Source of the DNA: Acidobacteriota bacterium
GTDB lineage: Bacteria > Acidobacteriota > Terriglobia > Bryobacterales > Bryobacteraceae
DNA: 51,449 bases
NCBI GenBank assembly: GCA_016871055.1
Contig: VFZW01000006.1
Location: 1 to 51,449 of the forward strand
Direction of reading: 5' to 3'
The position numbers were made by a program, and so were the translations under genes. Below are positions 43,664 to 51,365 of this stretch, piece by piece (the stretch's first letter is position 1; each line of letters begins with the position of its first letter). Below the pieces are notes generated by a model. That model did not search any database. It had not been told where the DNA came from and saw only the letters and a program-made list of their open reading frames with translations.

Positions 43664-44356
43664 ATGAAGATCCTTGTTTCCCTTTTTGCCGGCCTCGCTT
43701 TGGCCGGTGCCAGCGCAGGTGTGATCGAAAGCGTGCAAGCCAATAAAGACAGGGCATTGACGGCCGATCCGTCGACGCCTTTTTGGAAAGCCGCCAGGCC
43801 GGTGATCGCGGAGAACTCGCCCTTGGGCGAAGCCGTGCCGGGGCATCGCACGGAGATCCGTTCGCGATGGACGAAACAAAATTTATACATCTTGTTCTCG
43901 TGCTCGTACGAGGAGCTTTTTCTGAAGCCGGATCCGGATGTGACGAAGGACACGTGGCGATTGTGGGAGTGGGATGTGGCCGAGGTTTTTGTCGGCGCCG
44001 AGATCGACAATATTACGCACTATCGCGAGTACCAGGTGTCGCCGCAAGGCGAGTGGATCGACCTCGACATCGACAGAAAGAAACCGCAGCCGCAGGGCGG
44101 CATGTTGTGGAACTCCGGGTACAAGGTAAAGGCGCGCATCGATGAGAAAAAAAAGATCTGGTACGGCGAGTTTCAGATTCCGATCGCGAGCATCAACGGC
44201 GCTGAAGCAAAACCCAACGGCGAGATGCGTATCAACTTCTACCGCATGCAAGGCAAGCGGCCGAACAGCAAGATGATCGCGTGGCAGGCGACCGGCGCGC
44301 GCAACTATCATGTGCCGGAAAAATTCGGCAAACTCCGCCTGGTGAGCGGCAAGTAA
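43664..44356 (+). CDS. Secreted CBM9/DOMON-like carbohydrate-binding-family protein
   Basis: Signal peptide MKILVSLFAGLALAGASA; LYILFSCSYEELFLKPDPDVTKDTWRLWEWDVAEVFVGAEIDNITHYREYQVSPQGEWIDLDID. Confidence 0.75.
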   Translation: MKILVSLFAGLALAGASAGVIESVQANKDRALTADPSTPFWKAARPVIAENSPLGEAVPGHRTEIRSRWTKQNLYILFSCSYEELFLKPDPDVTKDTWRLWEWDVAEVFVGAEIDNITHYREYQVSPQGEWIDLDIDRKKPQPQGGMLWNSGYKVKARIDEKKKIWYGEFQIPIASINGAEAKPNGEMRINFYRMQGKRPNSKMIAWQATGARNYHVPEKFGKLRLVSGK

Positions 44357-45723
44357 TGCGGGGTGACAGCGGGCTGCGCATATCGCCCGTGGGCTTGCGT
44401 GGCATCGTCGGGCGAGGGCTGACGGCCACGCACTTTCTGGATTTCGCGGCGGCCTTCGGAACGTATATCGAGCGCGGAAGGCCCGTCGTTGTTGGCCGCG
44501 ATCCGCGATCGAGCGGACGGATGGCTCGCGAGGGCGTCGTCAGCGCGTTGATGGCGTGCGGGCACGAGGTAATCGATCTGGGCGTCGTTTCGACTCCAGT
44601 TGTGCAGCATGCATTGCAGCGGTTGGACGCTGCGGGCGGCATAGCGATCTCGGCGAGCCATAACGCGGCGGAATGGAACGCGCTGCGGTTTCTCGGCGCG
44701 AACGGGACGTATCTTCCGACCGCGGAGTCGAACGAGCTGCTCGATATCTATCACCTGCGCAAGTTCAGATTTGTGGAGTGGGATTCGATCGGTACGCTGC
44801 GTGAGGACGCGACCGCGATCGAACGCTACATCGACGACCTCGAGCAAGTCTTCGATTTTGCCGCCCTTCGCGGCATGCGGGTTGTCGTCGACTGCTGCAA
44901 CGGCACCTCCGCGCCGACCCTGCGCCGCATCGTTGACCGCTTCGGTCTCGACCTGATTCTGATCAACGAACGCGTCGAGGGCGATGCCTTCGCACACGAA
45001 CCGACAACCTCCGCCCGTATGGTGGAACTGCAACTCGGGCCGCTGATTCAGCCGCTGCAAGCGCGTGCCGGATTCCTGTTCGACATCGATTCGGACCGCG
45101 TGGCGATGGCCGACGATCGCGGGCGCGGCGTGTCGGAAGAAATGATGCTCCCGCTGCTGGCCGATCACCTCATGACGCACATGCCCGGCCGAATCGCAAT
45201 TACGAACTTGTCCAGTTCGGCATTGCTCGAAGAGGTCGCGGCGAAGCATGGCGGGCGAGTGGTGCGCGTGCCCGTCGGACGGCAGGCGGCGATGGACGCG
45301 TTGGCGGCGTATCGCCCCGAACAAATTGCCGTAGCCGGCGAAGGCACCGGCGCGGTGATGATGCCGCAATTTCGCTTCATCTACGATGGCATCGCGTCGA
45401 TGCTCGCCGTCATGACGATGATGCGCGAACGCGGACAAACGGTGCGCGAAATCCTGGCGTCGTACCCGCGCTATGAAATCTTGAAGGGCGAGATTCCGCT
45501 GGAATCGCCGCGTGTGCCGGCGCTGCTGATGGACTTGCAGGACGACTATCCCGACGCGCGCGTCGACCGCAGCGACGGGCTGCGCGTCAGTTGGCCGGAC
45601 CGCTGGTTTCACGTCCGTGTCAGCCAGACCGAGCCGATCCTTCGCGTCATCTGCGAGCAGCGCGGCGAGGCGCCGTCGGCTCTCTTCGAATCCCTAATGG
45701 ACAAGGTGAGGAGCTACAGCTGA
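44356..45723 (+). CDS. Alpha-D-phosphohexomutase (phosphoglucosamine/phosphomannomutase-like), copy 1
   Basis: LRGIVGRGLT; VVVGRDPRSSGRM; AISASHNAAEWNAL; FDIDSDRVAM; TEPILRVICE. Confidence 0.88.
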   Translation: MRGDSGLRISPVGLRGIVGRGLTATHFLDFAAAFGTYIERGRPVVVGRDPRSSGRMAREGVVSALMACGHEVIDLGVVSTPVVQHALQRLDAAGGIAISASHNAAEWNALRFLGANGTYLPTAESNELLDIYHLRKFRFVEWDSIGTLREDATAIERYIDDLEQVFDFAALRGMRVVVDCCNGTSAPTLRRIVDRFGLDLILINERVEGDAFAHEPTTSARMVELQLGPLIQPLQARAGFLFDIDSDRVAMADDRGRGVSEEMMLPLLADHLMTHMPGRIAITNLSSSALLEEVAAKHGGRVVRVPVGRQAAMDALAAYRPEQIAVAGEGTGAVMMPQFRFIYDGIASMLAVMTMMRERGQTVREILASYPRYEILKGEIPLESPRVPALLMDLQDDYPDARVDRSDGLRVSWPDRWFHVRVSQTEPILRVICEQRGEAPSALFESLMDKVRSYS

Positions 45724-47084
45724 TGCCGCGCGAACACCTATTAAAAATTGGCGTTTCCGGCGTGCGCGGCGTCGTCGGCGAGTTCCTGACTCCGTCGTTG
45801 ACGCTGAGTTTCGCGCAGGCGTTCGGAACGTATGTCGGCGGCGGGCGCGTTGTTGTCGGCCGCGATACACGCACCAGCGGGCCGATGCTACAGCACGCGG
45901 TGCATTGCGGATTACTGGCGGCGGGATGCGATGTCGTCGATGTCGGTGTCTTGCCGACGCCGACGATGCAGATCTACGTCGAACATATTCGCGCGCGCGG
46001 CGGGATCGGACTGACCGCGTCGCACAATCCACCGGAGTACAACGCGTTGAAACTCTTCAACGCCGAGGGGCAGTTTTTCAATCATTACGAGCGCAACGAA
46101 CTGCTTGACCTCTACCATCAGCGCGATTTCTCGCAGGCGCAGAACGCGGCGATCGGCCATGTGCGGCGCGATGACGGCACGGCGAAATCGATCCACATCG
46201 GGCGCGTGCTGGCGAAGGTCGATGCCGATCGGATCAAGCGGCGGAAGTTCAAAGTGGCGCTCGACGCGGTGAACGGCGCGGGTTCGGTGATGACGCCGGA
46301 GTTTCTCACTGATTCGCTCGGCTGCCGTCTCGACGCAATTGCAATCGATCCGACGAAGGTCTTTCCGCGTATCGCCGAACCGAGGCCGGACACGCTGGGC
46401 GATCTGACGGCGCTGGTGCAAAAGTCCGGCGCCGATGTCGGCTTCGCGCAGGACCCCGATGCCGACCGCCTCGCAATCGCCGATGAAACGGGCCATGTGG
46501 TCGATAACGACGACGTTCTTGCGCTGGCTGTGCTGCGAGCGCTGGCCGTTGTGCCCGGCGATGTCGTGGTGAACCTAACGACATCGGCGGCGATCGACGA
46601 TATCGCCAAGACGTTTCACCGGCGCGTGTATCGAACGCCGGTGGGCGAGGCGAATGTGGTCGACACGATGCGCGCAGTGCGGGCGGCGATCGGCGGCGAA
46701 GGTTCGGCGGGCGGCGTGATTTTCCCGGCGGTGCAGTTGTGTCGCGACTCGTATATCGCGATGGCGTTCTTGCTCGACCTGATGGCGGAAACGGGGCAGA
46801 CCGTGTCGCAGTTGGTGGCTTCGCTGCCGGCGTATACGCGCAAGTCGGGCAAGGTGCCGTTCGCGCACGGCCGGCTGGGCGGGCTGATGCAGGCGCTGGA
46901 AGAAGGATTCCCGGAAGCCGAAGCCGACCGCTCCGACGGCCTAAAACTCATCTGGCCCGATCGATGGCTGCATGTGCGGGCGTCGAACACGGAGCCGTTG
47001 CTCCGGTTGGCGGTGGAGGCGCGGGATGGGGAGCGGGCATTGGCGCTTTACGATACCGCGTGGAAATTACTCACGAGCCTGTAA
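45723..47084 (+). CDS. Alpha-D-phosphohexomutase (phosphoglucosamine mutase-like), copy 2
   Basis: GVSGVRGVVGEFLTP; VVVGRDTRTSGPM; GLTASHNPPEYNALKLF; AQDPDADRLAIAD; SNTEPLLRLAVE; TGATG overlap with copy 1. Confidence 0.92.
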   Translation: MPREHLLKIGVSGVRGVVGEFLTPSLTLSFAQAFGTYVGGGRVVVGRDTRTSGPMLQHAVHCGLLAAGCDVVDVGVLPTPTMQIYVEHIRARGGIGLTASHNPPEYNALKLFNAEGQFFNHYERNELLDLYHQRDFSQAQNAAIGHVRRDDGTAKSIHIGRVLAKVDADRIKRRKFKVALDAVNGAGSVMTPEFLTDSLGCRLDAIAIDPTKVFPRIAEPRPDTLGDLTALVQKSGADVGFAQDPDADRLAIADETGHVVDNDDVLALAVLRALAVVPGDVVVNLTTSAAIDDIAKTFHRRVYRTPVGEANVVDTMRAVRAAIGGEGSAGGVIFPAVQLCRDSYIAMAFLLDLMAETGQTVSQLVASLPAYTRKSGKVPFAHGRLGGLMQALEEGFPEAEADRSDGLKLIWPDRWLHVRASNTEPLLRLAVEARDGERALALYDTAWKLLTSL

Positions 47085-47557: not shown

Positions 47558-48211
47558 TTGCGCTACCTGCTTTTTCACAAGCCGTACGGTGTGTTGACAC
47601 AGTTCACCGACGCCGCGGGCACGGGACGAAAGACTCTGGAAGACTTCGTCTCCGTGCCCGGCGTGTATGCGGCCGGGCGGTTGGATGCCGATAGCGAAGG
47701 CCTGCTGCTGCTGACCGACGACGGGGATTTGCAGCACCGGTTGCTCGATCCGAAGTTTGGTCATCGGCGTACGTATTGGGTGCAAGTAGAGGGCGCGCCA
47801 TCGGAAGTAGCGCTCGCCCCGCTGCGCGCCGGTGTTCTTGTGCAAGGTGAGATGACGCTTCCAGCGGAGGCGTCGCTGCTTGGCTTCGATCCGCCGATCC
47901 CGCCGCGCGATCCGCCGGTGCGATTTCGCGCGGCGATTCCGACGACTTGGATTTCCTTGACGCTCACCGAAGGGCGGAATCGTCAGGTGCGGCGCATGAC
48001 CGCGGCGATTGGCTTTCCGACGCTGCGGCTGGTGCGGTGGTCGATGGAGGCGTTGGCGCTTGACGGACTGAAACCTGGCGAGTGGCGTTCACTCAACACC
48101 GCCGAACTTACTTCTCTGCGAGCAGCCGTTTATGGGACTCGTCGAGAGCCAGTTTCTCCTCGCGCGAAACCTTCGGGTACTCGAGGTCGAGGCCGTCGAT
48201 GGCGCGGGTGA
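47558..48211 (+). CDS. rRNA/tRNA pseudouridine synthase, RsuA/RluE-type
   Basis: YLLFHKPYGVLTQFTD; AAGRLDADSEGLLLLTDDGDLQHRLLDP; LTLTEGRNRQVRRMTAAIGFPTLRLVR; TTG start. Confidence 0.92.
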   Translation: MRYLLFHKPYGVLTQFTDAAGTGRKTLEDFVSVPGVYAAGRLDADSEGLLLLTDDGDLQHRLLDPKFGHRRTYWVQVEGAPSEVALAPLRAGVLVQGEMTLPAEASLLGFDPPIPPRDPPVRFRAAIPTTWISLTLTEGRNRQVRRMTAAIGFPTLRLVRWSMEALALDGLKPGEWRSLNTAELTSLRAAVYGTRREPVSPRAKPSGTRGRGRRWRG

Positions 48212-49010
48212 GGATGCTCGACGCCAGCATGCGGGCGGTAGACTTGTCGTCGGCGGGGATGACGTACCAGGGCGCCCATTTGGTGCTGGTGGCCGATAGC
48301 GCGTCTTCATAGGCGCGCATATAGTCGTCCCAGTATTGGCGCTCGTTCAAATCGTGCGCGGAGAATTTCCAGTTCTTCTCGGGGTTCTCGAGGCGTTCGA
48401 GGAGGCGCTTCTTTTGTTCCTCTTTCGATACGTGGAGGAAGAACTTCAAGATTAGCATGCCGTTGCGGGCGAGGTGGCGCTCGAAGTTGTTGATGTCGTC
48501 GTAGCGCTCTTCCCAGATCTTCTTGGTGATGACCTCTTCCGTCAGCTTTTGGCGCTTCAAGTACTCGGGATGCACTTTGACGACGAGCACCTCCTCGTAA
48601 TGGCTGCGGTTGAAGATTGTGATCTTGCCGCGCGCGGGCGAGACCCGCATGATGCGCCATAAATACGAATGATCCAACTCTTCGGCCGATGGCGCTTTGA
48701 AGCTGTAGACGTCGCAGCCCTGCGGATTCAGGCCCGCGGTGAGATGCTTCACCATGCCGTCCTTGCCGGCGGCGTCCATGGCCTGCAGGACGAGCAGTAC
48801 GGACCAGCGGTCGTCGGCGTACAGCTTGGCCTGCGCGTCGGCGAGTTCGTCGAGATTGTCGGCGAGCACCTTCGCCGCCGCCGCCTTCGCCTCGGCGTCG
48901 GACTTGCCCTTGAATGCATCGCCGCCGTCCCACTCGGTTGGAAACCTCTTCAGCTTGCACTTCTTGCCCGGGTCGACCAGGAACTTGTTCAGCACTTTGT
49001 TTCCGAACAT
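48108..49010 (-). CDS. ppk2: Polyphosphate kinase 2 family protein
   Basis: LLVLQAMDAAGKDGMVKHLTAGLNPQGCDVYSFKAPSAEELDHSYLWRIMRVSPARGKITIFNRSHYEEVLVVKVHPE. Confidence 0.95.
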   Translation of the reverse strand: MFGNKVLNKFLVDPGKKCKLKRFPTEWDGGDAFKGKSDAEAKAAAAKVLADNLDELADAQAKLYADDRWSVLLVLQAMDAAGKDGMVKHLTAGLNPQGCDVYSFKAPSAEELDHSYLWRIMRVSPARGKITIFNRSHYEEVLVVKVHPEYLKRQKLTEEVITKKIWEERYDDINNFERHLARNGMLILKFFLHVSKEEQKKRLLERLENPEKNWKFSAHDLNERQYWDDYMRAYEDALSATSTKWAPWYVIPADDKSTARMLASSILTRAIDGLDLEYPKVSREEKLALDESHKRLLAEK

Positions 49011-49033
49011 AACTCCACGACAATAGCAGATAG

Positions 49034-50428
49034 ATGCCTCCCGAGGTCGTAGCAGTCGCCGAACAGCGCGCGGTGTATGCGCAGGTGCGCGAACTCGTGT
49101 CGATCGCGCCGAAGCTGGCGTTCGAAAAAACGGCGCTGTTGCGCGATCCGCTGTTGCGATCGCGGTTGCGCAAGGCGGCGTACATTGCGCTGGCGGCGCG
49201 CGCGCCGGAGGATGCGGCGAAGTTGCTGCCATCGGTCGCCGATGAGAAATGGCTGGGGGCGGTACACTTCGCCGCAGCGCTGGATGTGGCGTGGCACACG
49301 GTGCGACAGCAGCCGGATCTTTCGAAGCGGCTGCTGGTGGCATCGGCGGCGCGCTGGCCCGATGCCGCGCTGCGGGCGCGGGCGCAGTACATTGATTTGC
49401 CGTATGGCCGCGAGATCTTCGATGCCGCTGCGCGCGCCGCGCCGGAGCCGCCGACATTCGAGCGGCGCGCTTCGCAACTGTTGCTCGCGCCGCCGGCGGG
49501 ATTGAGCGGCGCGGAGAAACTGACGCTGGCCGCGATGGCGCGCACCGATGTCGAAATCGATCGCGCGGTGGCGTTGGCGCGCGGCGTCGACTTGAAAGAC
49601 CCTTCGTTGTTGGCGATGCCGCCCGGTACGCTGCGCGCGGCGTTGGCGCTGTTGCCGGAACCGGATGTCCCCGATGCGTTGGCCGCGCGGGCGATGGAAG
49701 GCATCGATGCCGCCGAAGATCCGGTGCTGGAAACGGCGCGGGCGGCGGCGTTTTTGCGGAAGCCTGTGCCAGGGCTGCCGTCGCCGTATTTGGGCGAGCT
49801 CTTGCGCGCGCACATTGGCGGTCGCGGCGACCAATTCGATACGGCGGCGCTGTTCGTCGACGGCGTCAATACACAGCGCTACATCTTTCACGACGACGTC
49901 GATGGCGCGGAATCGTTTGCGAGTTTTCTGGCTGCGTACGCGGACTGGCGCGTCGAGCGCAACGATAGCTCCGTGAAGATATCGAGCCCGCGGAACGGCG
50001 CGCGGCGGATCGAGATTTTCGCGAACGTGCCGGGGCGTGCATTGACCATGACGACGCCGCCGCAAGTCATCGTGCATCGCGGGCACGATCATCACATCGA
50101 AGCGACGTTGCCGCTGCTCGATGCCGGCGCGCGGCTGATCTATCTGGGCAGTTGCCGGGGCATGCAGAATGTGGAAGATGTTGTGATGCGCTCGCCGAAC
50201 GCGGCGGTAATCGCGACGAGGGCGATCGGCGCGACCGCGGTCAACGACGCATTTTTGAAGGCGTTGAACGTGAAGCTGCTTTCGGGCGAGCCGCTGCGAT
50301 GGGATGCGGTTTGGGACTCGATGCGGCCGAAGCTGGGTGAACACTTCGCAGGTTATGTGCCGCCGCATCGCAATCACGCCGCCGTATTCTTCGAGGCATG
50401 GCTGCGTCACGCGCTGGCCGCGCGATAA
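49034..50428 (+). CDS. Hypothetical protein with putative caspase-like (clan CD) C-terminal motif
   Basis: Intact 464-aa ORF; C-term VIVHRGHDHHIEATLPLLDAGARLIYLGSCRGMQNVEDVVMRSPNAAVIATRAIG. Confidence 0.65.
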   Translation: MPPEVVAVAEQRAVYAQVRELVSIAPKLAFEKTALLRDPLLRSRLRKAAYIALAARAPEDAAKLLPSVADEKWLGAVHFAAALDVAWHTVRQQPDLSKRLLVASAARWPDAALRARAQYIDLPYGREIFDAAARAAPEPPTFERRASQLLLAPPAGLSGAEKLTLAAMARTDVEIDRAVALARGVDLKDPSLLAMPPGTLRAALALLPEPDVPDALAARAMEGIDAAEDPVLETARAAAFLRKPVPGLPSPYLGELLRAHIGGRGDQFDTAALFVDGVNTQRYIFHDDVDGAESFASFLAAYADWRVERNDSSVKISSPRNGARRIEIFANVPGRALTMTTPPQVIVHRGHDHHIEATLPLLDAGARLIYLGSCRGMQNVEDVVMRSPNAAVIATRAIGATAVNDAFLKALNVKLLSGEPLRWDAVWDSMRPKLGEHFAGYVPPHRNHAAVFFEAWLRHALAAR

Positions 50429-50436
50429 TAGCGGCC

Positions 50437-50859
50437 ATGAAGCTGATTGAATACGCCGATGCCGCGCCCGAAGCGCGCGCGATTTTTGACGACATCATGG
50501 CGGTACGCAAAACCGACCGCGTGAATAATTTCTGGAAGGCGCTGGCGAACGACCCGGCGACGATGCGGCGGACTTGGGAGAGCATCAAAGAAATCATGGG
50601 GCCGGGCGCGCTCGATCCAGTAACGAAAGAACTCATCTACATCGCCGTGAGCGCGACCAATAGCTGCGACTACTGCATCGCCACGCACACAGACGCGGCG
50701 CGGAAGAAGGGAATGACGCAGGAGATGTTTAACGAGATGATGGCCGTGGTCGGCATGGCGAACGAGACGAACCGGTTGGTGACCGGGTTCCGGGTGCCTC
50801 TGGATGAAGGCTGCTGTGATGGGCCCGTTGGCCTTGCAGAGGAAATTTACTTCGGATAA
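50437..50859 (+). CDS. Carboxymuconolactone decarboxylase/AhpD-like protein
   Basis: GALDPVTKELIYIAVSATNSCDYCIATHTDAARKKGMTQEMFNEMMAVVG (CxxC...H). Confidence 0.92.
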   Translation: MKLIEYADAAPEARAIFDDIMAVRKTDRVNNFWKALANDPATMRRTWESIKEIMGPGALDPVTKELIYIAVSATNSCDYCIATHTDAARKKGMTQEMFNEMMAVVGMANETNRLVTGFRVPLDEGCCDGPVGLAEEIYFG

Positions 50860-50879: not shown

Positions 50880-51365
50880 ATGCTTCCGCTTTTTCATCGC
50901 ATGACCGCGCTGGCGTGCGCCTGTGTGCCTTTGTCCGCCCAGACGCCCGTTGGCCCCGGGATCTTCGACAGCACCCGCGGAAGCATTAACAACACGCAGG
51001 TCGAGTATTCTTCGCCAGCGGGTGAAATTCCGATCTCCGTGCCGGGCTTCAACGGCCGCATGCGAATTCAGTTTCCGCGCAGCCTGCCCTCAGGTACGGT
51101 GAGCCAGGACGGAAAGAGCGTCAGGCTCGCCGAGCCGGTCACCGTCACGCTTGGCGTATCGGGAACTCGCGTGGCTGGGGCGACGAGTTCCAGCACCGAG
51201 ATTCGTGCGAGCATTCAGTACGGAAATCTACCGGGTTGCGCGCCGTTGGCGCGGAACTTCCCCGTGGGGTCGACTGTCGATCTCACGTTGACTTGCACGC
51301 TGAATACCGTCAACCTTCCGGTGAGTGTGACTCCGGCCTTCTTTCCAGCGCTGCTAGATTCTTGA
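50880..51365 (+). CDS. Secreted hypothetical protein
   Basis: N-terminal hydrophobic segment TALACACVPLSAQTPVGPG followed by beta-rich sequence. Confidence 0.55.
   Translation: MLPLFHRMTALACACVPLSAQTPVGPGIFDSTRGSINNTQVEYSSPAGEIPISVPGFNGRMRIQFPRSLPSGTVSQDGKSVRLAEPVTVTLGVSGTRVAGATSSSTEIRASIQYGNLPGCAPLARNFPVGSTVDLTLTCTLNTVNLPVSVTPAFFPALLDS

What the first reader, a model, noticed from the sequence alone, without database searches (positions are those of the whole stretch)
49034..50428. Putative new caspase-like (clan CD) cysteine-peptidase family member
C-terminus contains VIVHRGHDHHIE (His motif, about 50065-50099) and LIYLGSCRGMQN (Cys at 50153-50155, compare QACRG of caspases), separated by about 25 residues and each after a beta-strand-like hydrophobic run. 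The ~300-residue N-terminus is alpha-rich and unassigned. I recall similar unannotated RGHSYH...LGSCGG proteins in Bacteroidetes.
Basis: partly seen in the sequence, partly recalled or inferred. Interest (0 to 1): 0.6.

Follow-up and report, generated by a model that had tools for sequence, protein, structure and literature searches.

The report
Unannotated His-Cys enzyme family, possibly caspase-like
The gene belongs to a previously unlabelled bacterial protein family whose tail domain keeps one histidine and one cysteine in every relative examined, which fits a caspase-like protein-cutting enzyme, although neither its fold class nor any activity has been shown.

Summary
ORF 49034-50428 (+), 464 aa, is a real gene under purifying selection (dN/dS about 0.19). 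The His motif lies at 50066-50101 and the Cys codon at 50153-50155. The motif alone is cheap: a loose version occurs in 14 of 74 long frames of the window. Conservation carries the case. In 38 aligned relatives the C-terminal ~194-aa domain has one invariant His (H351, in RGH) and one invariant Cys (C374, in GxCxG), at fixed spacing. H348 of HRGH is dispensable. The family is found in 41 of 257 genomes of the order, all in the window's own family (record titles: Acidobacteria, Bryobacterales), and on four Azospirillum plasmids. Pfam, NCBIfam, PHROGs, PADLOC and PDB sequence searches assign nothing. AlphaFold2 gives a confident alpha/beta domain (pTM 0.86) with H351 and C374 just after consecutive strands, and an all-helical N-terminus. 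Membership of clan CD is not proven: Foldseek's 50 best PDB hits are almost all G domains and none is clan CD, and profile comparison stays near noise where known clan CD families find each other. Verdict: a new uncharacterised family, most likely a caspase-like cysteine peptidase (0.55); catalysis and clan unproven.

The parts
49034..50428 (+). Whole ORF, 464 aa: N-terminal helical region plus C-terminal alpha/beta domain with the His-Cys pair
   Evidence: homologs; dN/dS
49034..49843 (+). N-terminal all-helical region (residues 1-270), no family assignment; longer in many relatives
   Evidence: AlphaFold2 model; Pfam negative
49844..50425 (+). C-terminal alpha/beta domain (residues 271-464), the unit shared by all relatives including Azospirillum
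   Evidence: alignments A2 and A3; AlphaFold2 pLDDT 87, pTM 0.86
49895..49906 (+). Acidic loop after the first strand: D288, D290 and G291 invariant; candidate P1-binding acidic residues (inference)
   Evidence: 38 of 38 sequences
50078..50086 (+). R349-G350-H351, invariant; candidate catalytic His H351 (codon 50084-50086), following strand 345-348
   Evidence: 38 of 38 sequences; strand; H348 is Gln in L102-L104
50144..50161 (+). L371-G-S-C-R-G376; candidate nucleophile C374 (codon 50153-50155), following strand 368-371; G372, C374 and G376 invariant
   Evidence: 38 of 38 sequences
50204..50248 (+). Next strand (391-394) and following helix start, with invariant G399 and N404 and nearly invariant D405; loosely alignable with the strand and Asp that follow the Cys in CHAT domains
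48108..49010 (-). Neighbour: polyphosphate kinase 2 (PPK2), divergent, start codons separated by 23 nt (49011-49033); pairing kept in the genus, not outside it
   Evidence: Pfam; synteny; sequence
50437..50859 (+). Neighbour: carboxymuconolactone decarboxylase-family protein downstream on the same strand, kept in most of the close clade
   Evidence: Pfam; synteny

Best explanation
The gene encodes a member of an undescribed bacterial protein family. An N-terminal helical (solenoid-like) region is followed by a C-terminal alpha/beta domain that most likely acts as a caspase-like cysteine peptidase. Proposed mechanism: H351, at the end of one strand, activates C374, at the end of the next strand, and C374 attacks the peptide bond. 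The invariant acidic loop after the first strand (D288, D290) would bind the P1 residue, which favours Arg or Lys. The N-terminal helical region would gate access or present substrate, as helical repeats do in TPR-CHAT proteins and separase. Shown: the gene, the family, the invariance of H351 and C374, the strand-His-strand-Cys order in a confident model, and the lack of annotated relatives. Inferred: strand adjacency, catalysis, peptidase activity, P1 preference and the role of the N-terminus.
For: H351 and C374 are the only invariant His and Cys among 38 diverse members, at a fixed 23-residue spacing. The order is His then Cys, each shortly after a strand, in a model with pLDDT 87 and pTM 0.86. 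Unforced hhalign alignments, although not significant, place the motifs on the catalytic Cys of CHAT and on the catalytic His of C14 and C25. The residue before the Cys varies (GSC, GGC, GAC, GDC) while the Cys is kept. The gene is under purifying selection.
Against: Foldseek's top 50 in the PDB holds no clan CD structure; the best hits are FeoB, Ras and EF-Tu G domains with TM about 0.4. Profile scores against CHAT and C14 are inside the shuffled null and only just above it for C25, whereas known clan CD families score 36-45 against one another with the same method. The His-Cys spacing of 23 is short for the clan (general knowledge). Nothing in the neighbourhoods points to a protease substrate. 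No member appears to have been studied.
Confidence: 0.55

Rival explanations
1. A cysteine-dependent enzyme of another Rossmann-like superfamily, for instance a small-molecule amidohydrolase or transferase, in which C374 is the nucleophile, H351 assists, and D288, D290, R349 and N404 bind a substrate or metal ion. It would share the His-Cys chemistry but not the caspase ancestry.
For: Foldseek finds general Rossmann-like and P-loop alpha/beta folds rather than clan CD. GxCxG looks like the nucleophile elbow of class I glutamine amidotransferases (general knowledge). The profile comparison with clan CD is near noise level.
Against: In class I amidotransferases the His and Glu follow the Cys, but here no His after C374 is invariant. 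No Pfam family of that kind appears even at E up to 5. His before Cys on consecutive strands is the clan CD order.
Confidence: 0.28
2. A binding or regulatory domain without catalysis, in which the conserved Asp, His and Cys bind a metal ion or stabilise the fold.
For: Several Asp residues besides the His and Cys are invariant. No activity is known for any member.
Against: Only one Cys and one His are invariant, few for a metal site. RGH and GxCxG are among the best conserved stretches while the domain as a whole falls to about 35-45% identity, which is typical of an active site.
Confidence: 0.15
3. A GTPase-like domain, as the top Foldseek hits would suggest.
For: The best hits in the PDB and viral libraries are FeoB, Ras and EF-Tu G domains.
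Against: The loop after the first strand reads DDxDGxxS or close to it in all members, so the P-loop GxxxxGK[S/T] is absent. TM-scores are about 0.4, and there is no sequence match in Pfam or PDB.
Confidence: 0.02

Closest known systems
CHAT domain (Pfam PF12770), including the TPR-CHAT protease Csx29
   Same: C-terminal alpha/beta domain after a long helical N-terminus; His and Cys motifs after strands in the same order; hhalign's own alignment places LGSCR on the CHAT Cys motif (LSACR), and the strand and Asp after it line up loosely.
   Different: Not significant by profile (score 20.8, P 0.04, inside the shuffled null). The Pfam CHAT model does not hit the family. CHAT domains have a longer His-Cys spacing. 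The N-terminus shows no Pfam TPR.
Separase (MEROPS C50)
   Same: Helical N-terminal region with a C-terminal catalytic domain; GH...GC motif with a short His-Cys spacing (from memory, about 26 residues in human separase).
   Different: No detectable sequence similarity in the PDB searches; not compared by profile; eukaryotic.
Gingipain family (MEROPS C25, Pfam PF01364)
   Same: GH motif aligned in catalytic register by hhalign, with a score just above 40 shuffles; exported, as many relatives appear to be.
   Different: Probability only about 1%; the Cys motif is not in register; the Pfam C25 model does not hit the family.
Orthocaspases/metacaspases (MEROPS C14, Pfam PF00656)
   Same: His-Cys dyad in the same order; the same genome holds ordinary C14 and CHAT genes.
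   Different: Profile score inside the null; the HG...DxC signature is replaced by RGH...GxCxG; no Pfam C14 match.

Membership tests
Clan CD cysteine peptidases | Conserved His-Cys dyad with His before Cys in sequence | tested here: met
   H351 and C374 invariant in 38 of 38; A3 shows the same. That they are catalytic is not shown
Clan CD cysteine peptidases | His and Cys at the C-terminal ends of two neighbouring parallel strands (3 and 4) | tested here: inconclusive
   Model shows strand 345-348 before H351 and strand 368-371 before C374; adjacency not readable without coordinates
Clan CD cysteine peptidases | Caspase-hemoglobinase core, strand order 2-1-3-4 with flanking helices | tested here: inconclusive
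   Succession of elements is compatible, with an extra hairpin before the second core strand; Foldseek top 50 lists G domains and other Rossmann-like folds, no clan CD
Clan CD cysteine peptidases | Significant sequence similarity to a known family of the clan (not required by MEROPS) | tested here: not met
   hhalign scores 18-21 against CHAT, C14 and C25, while these score 36-45 among themselves; no Pfam or PDB hit. MEROPS assigns by structure and function, not sequence (PMC12445089)
Clan CD cysteine peptidases | Endopeptidase activity with strict P1 specificity | not testable with these tools
   needs an assay
CHAT (PF12770) | Match to the Pfam CHAT profile | tested here: not met
   no hit at E up to 5 for P0001 or for the members of A1
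Peptidase C14 (PF00656) | Match to the Pfam C14 profile | tested here: not met
Peptidase C25 (PF01364) | Match to the Pfam C25 profile | tested here: not met
Peptidase C50 (separase) | Separase catalytic profile | not tested
   no separase profile compared; PDB sequence searches negative
Class I glutamine amidotransferase-like | Nucleophile elbow Cys followed later by catalytic His and Glu | tested here: not met
   GxCxG present, but no invariant His after C374; no Pfam hit
P-loop G domain | GxxxxGK[S/T] after the first strand | tested here: not met
   replaced by an acidic DDxDG-type loop in all members

The most novel reading that the evidence does not exclude
A further family of clan CD: a compact (~194 aa) caspase-like peptidase with an RGH...GxCxG dyad 23 residues apart and an acidic DDxDG loop, fused to a helical sensor or adaptor, exported in many members, found so far only in one acidobacterial family and on plasmids of Azospirillum, with an unknown substrate.
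Probability: 0.4. Interest if true: 0.55.

Novelty: new member of a known kind. Interest (0 to 1): 0.4.

Why it matters
If confirmed it would add a family to the caspase-like proteases, in soil, lake and groundwater Acidobacteria that already carry many CHAT and C14 genes, and would give a small domain with a fixed dyad on which the lower limit of the caspase fold can be tested. If it is not a protease, it is still a conserved, unannotated, enzyme-like family with a clear candidate active site.

Tried and rejected
Pfam, NCBIfam, PHROGs and PADLOC scans: nothing above noise. PDB sequence searches with the protein and with three profiles: nothing; the widest profile gives only chance hits to ribosomal uL4 and a Gag protein. 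IMG/VR and phage records: no relative. Foldseek against viral models: mostly Ras-like proteins. A Flavobacterium plasmid hit (H9, E 0.3) is an OmpA-family protein, chance. GTPase reading rejected for lack of a P-loop. Class I amidotransferase reading (suggested by LGSCRGMQ) set low because no His after the Cys is invariant and GMQ is not conserved. An antisense ORF of 473 aa (48989-50410, minus) was considered; it is the shadow of the + frame. A functional link to PPK2 is not claimed: the pairing is limited to one genus and may be simple inheritance. Literature: no paper found that describes the motif.

Full report
WHAT WAS CHECKED. The ORF at 49034-50428 (+) encodes 464 residues. By itself the motif means little: a loose hydrophobic-H...hydrophobic-C pattern is found in 14 of 74 long frames of the window, and the GH/HG version in 8 of 74. 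The gene is real. Against its nearest relative (93% identical) dN is 0.035 and dS 0.186, with changes concentrated at third codon positions, and the start codon, at or within two codons of an in-frame stop, is kept in most of the close clade.

FAMILY. Relatives occur in 17 of 61 close genomes, in 41 of 257 genomes of the order, 11 of 84 genera, all in the same family as the window and one copy per genome apart from G005, where two pieces lie at contig ends, and in 1 of 396 genomes sampled evenly from the phylum, the window's own. Titles of matching records say Acidobacteria, Bryobacterales, Bryobacteraceae, Candidatus Solibacter or Sulfopaludibacter. Four Azospirillum plasmids also carry the domain at about 29-34% identity over 96-100% of the query, annotated as hypothetical protein. 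Phage records and IMG/VR gave none. Pfam, NCBIfam, PADLOC, PHROGs and PDB sequence searches give no assignment.

THE CANDIDATE ACTIVE SITE. In 38 members, spanning the window's genus, other genera of its family and Azospirillum, the only invariant His is H351 and the only invariant Cys is C374. Other invariant residues include R282, F285, D288, D290, G291, F298, W305, A330, P333, R349, G350, G372, G376, A390, G399, N404, W423, W427, Y441 and P444. The spacing from H351 to C374 is 23 residues in 24 of 24 measured sequences, and the wider alignment has no gap there. The residue before the Cys varies (GSC, GGC, GAC, GDC). This is the pattern expected of a catalytic pair.

FOLD. AlphaFold2 on the full protein (16 sequences) gave pLDDT 84 and pTM 0.67, and on the domain (24 sequences) pLDDT 87 and pTM 0.86. 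The N-terminal 262 residues are all helices. The domain runs strand, helix, hairpin, strand, strand (345-348, then H351), short helix, strand (368-371, then C374), helix, strand (391-394), helices. [quoted passage not shown] It is not specific, however. Foldseek against the PDB returns mainly P-loop G domains (FeoB, Ras, EF-Tu; best E 4.5e-5, TM about 0.43) and no clan CD protein among the 50 listed of 1571; the full-length model and the viral library look the same. The G-domain function is excluded by the absence of a P-loop. Ras-like sheets have the order 2-3-1-4-5-6, in which strands 3-1-4-5 correspond to the caspase order 2-1-3-4 (general knowledge), so the hits do not contradict a caspase-like core, but I could not read coordinates to check this.

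PROFILE COMPARISON WITH CONTROLS. CHAT, C14 and C25 sequences were collected from acidobacterial genomes and compared with hhalign. Known clan CD families find each other: CHAT-C14 75.6% probability (score 45), CHAT-C25 44% (37.6), C14-C25 29% (35.8). The new family scores 20.8, 18.5 and 21.2 against CHAT, C14 and C25 (probabilities 0.4-1.3%). Column-shuffled versions reach 22.3, 22.0 and 18.6 at their 95th percentile (40 shuffles each), so only C25 is above its null. The chosen alignments do fall on catalytic motifs: LGSCR on LSACR of CHAT, RGH on the AGHG of C14 and on the DGHG of C25. I treat this as a hint, not as evidence of membership. MEROPS assigns this clan by structure and function rather than by sequence (PMC12445089), so the failed sequence test lowers the claim of membership without excluding it.

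SURROUNDINGS. Upstream and divergent lies PPK2 (48108-49010, minus), with only 23 nt between the two start codons. Downstream lies a carboxymuconolactone decarboxylase-family gene (50437-50859). The PPK2 pairing is seen in 15 of the 16 same-genus loci fetched (the sixteenth, L046, has too little upstream sequence) and in none of the more distant relatives. It may be inherited order only. By eye, many distant relatives (for example L093, L096-L098, L102-L104 and Azospirillum) start with a signal-peptide-like segment, whereas the window's clade does not; no signal predictor was available. The window's genome itself holds 8 CHAT and 3 C14 matches.

HOW IT PROBABLY WORKS. The best account is a cysteine peptidase using H351 and C374, with the acidic loop D288/D290 binding a basic P1 residue and the helical N-terminus controlling access or presenting substrate. 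Shown: gene, family, invariant pair, order of elements. Inferred: adjacency, catalysis, peptide substrate, P1 preference, regulation. I give this 0.55. The main rival is a cysteine enzyme of another Rossmann-like superfamily (0.28), then a non-catalytic domain (0.15).

LIMITS. Only 38 sequences stand behind the conservation statements, and only 24 behind the domain model. The Foldseek list shows 50 of 1571 matches.

Noticed in passing
window 48108-49010 (-) and 49034-50428 (+): PPK2 and the reported gene are divergent with only 23 nt between start codons, so at least one promoter should lie inside the other gene; the pairing is kept across the genus.
   Followed up: partly
window 44281-45723 and 45726-47084 (+): Two adjacent phosphoglucomutase/phosphomannomutase-family genes in tandem (Pfam PGM_PMM domains).
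   Followed up: no
L054 and L055 (Azospirillum plasmids): The same domain sits on large Azospirillum plasmids in unrelated gene surroundings, with a signal-peptide-like start, which suggests transfer between Acidobacteriota and Alphaproteobacteria or a much wider distribution than seen here.
   Followed up: partly
G000 contigs C517, C146, C309 and others: The window's genome holds 8 CHAT-domain and 3 C14-type matches; CHAT matches were found in all 41 genomes sampled from the family.
   Followed up: no
window 50880-51365 (+): Small ORF with a signal-like start and no Pfam match at the contig end.
   Followed up: no
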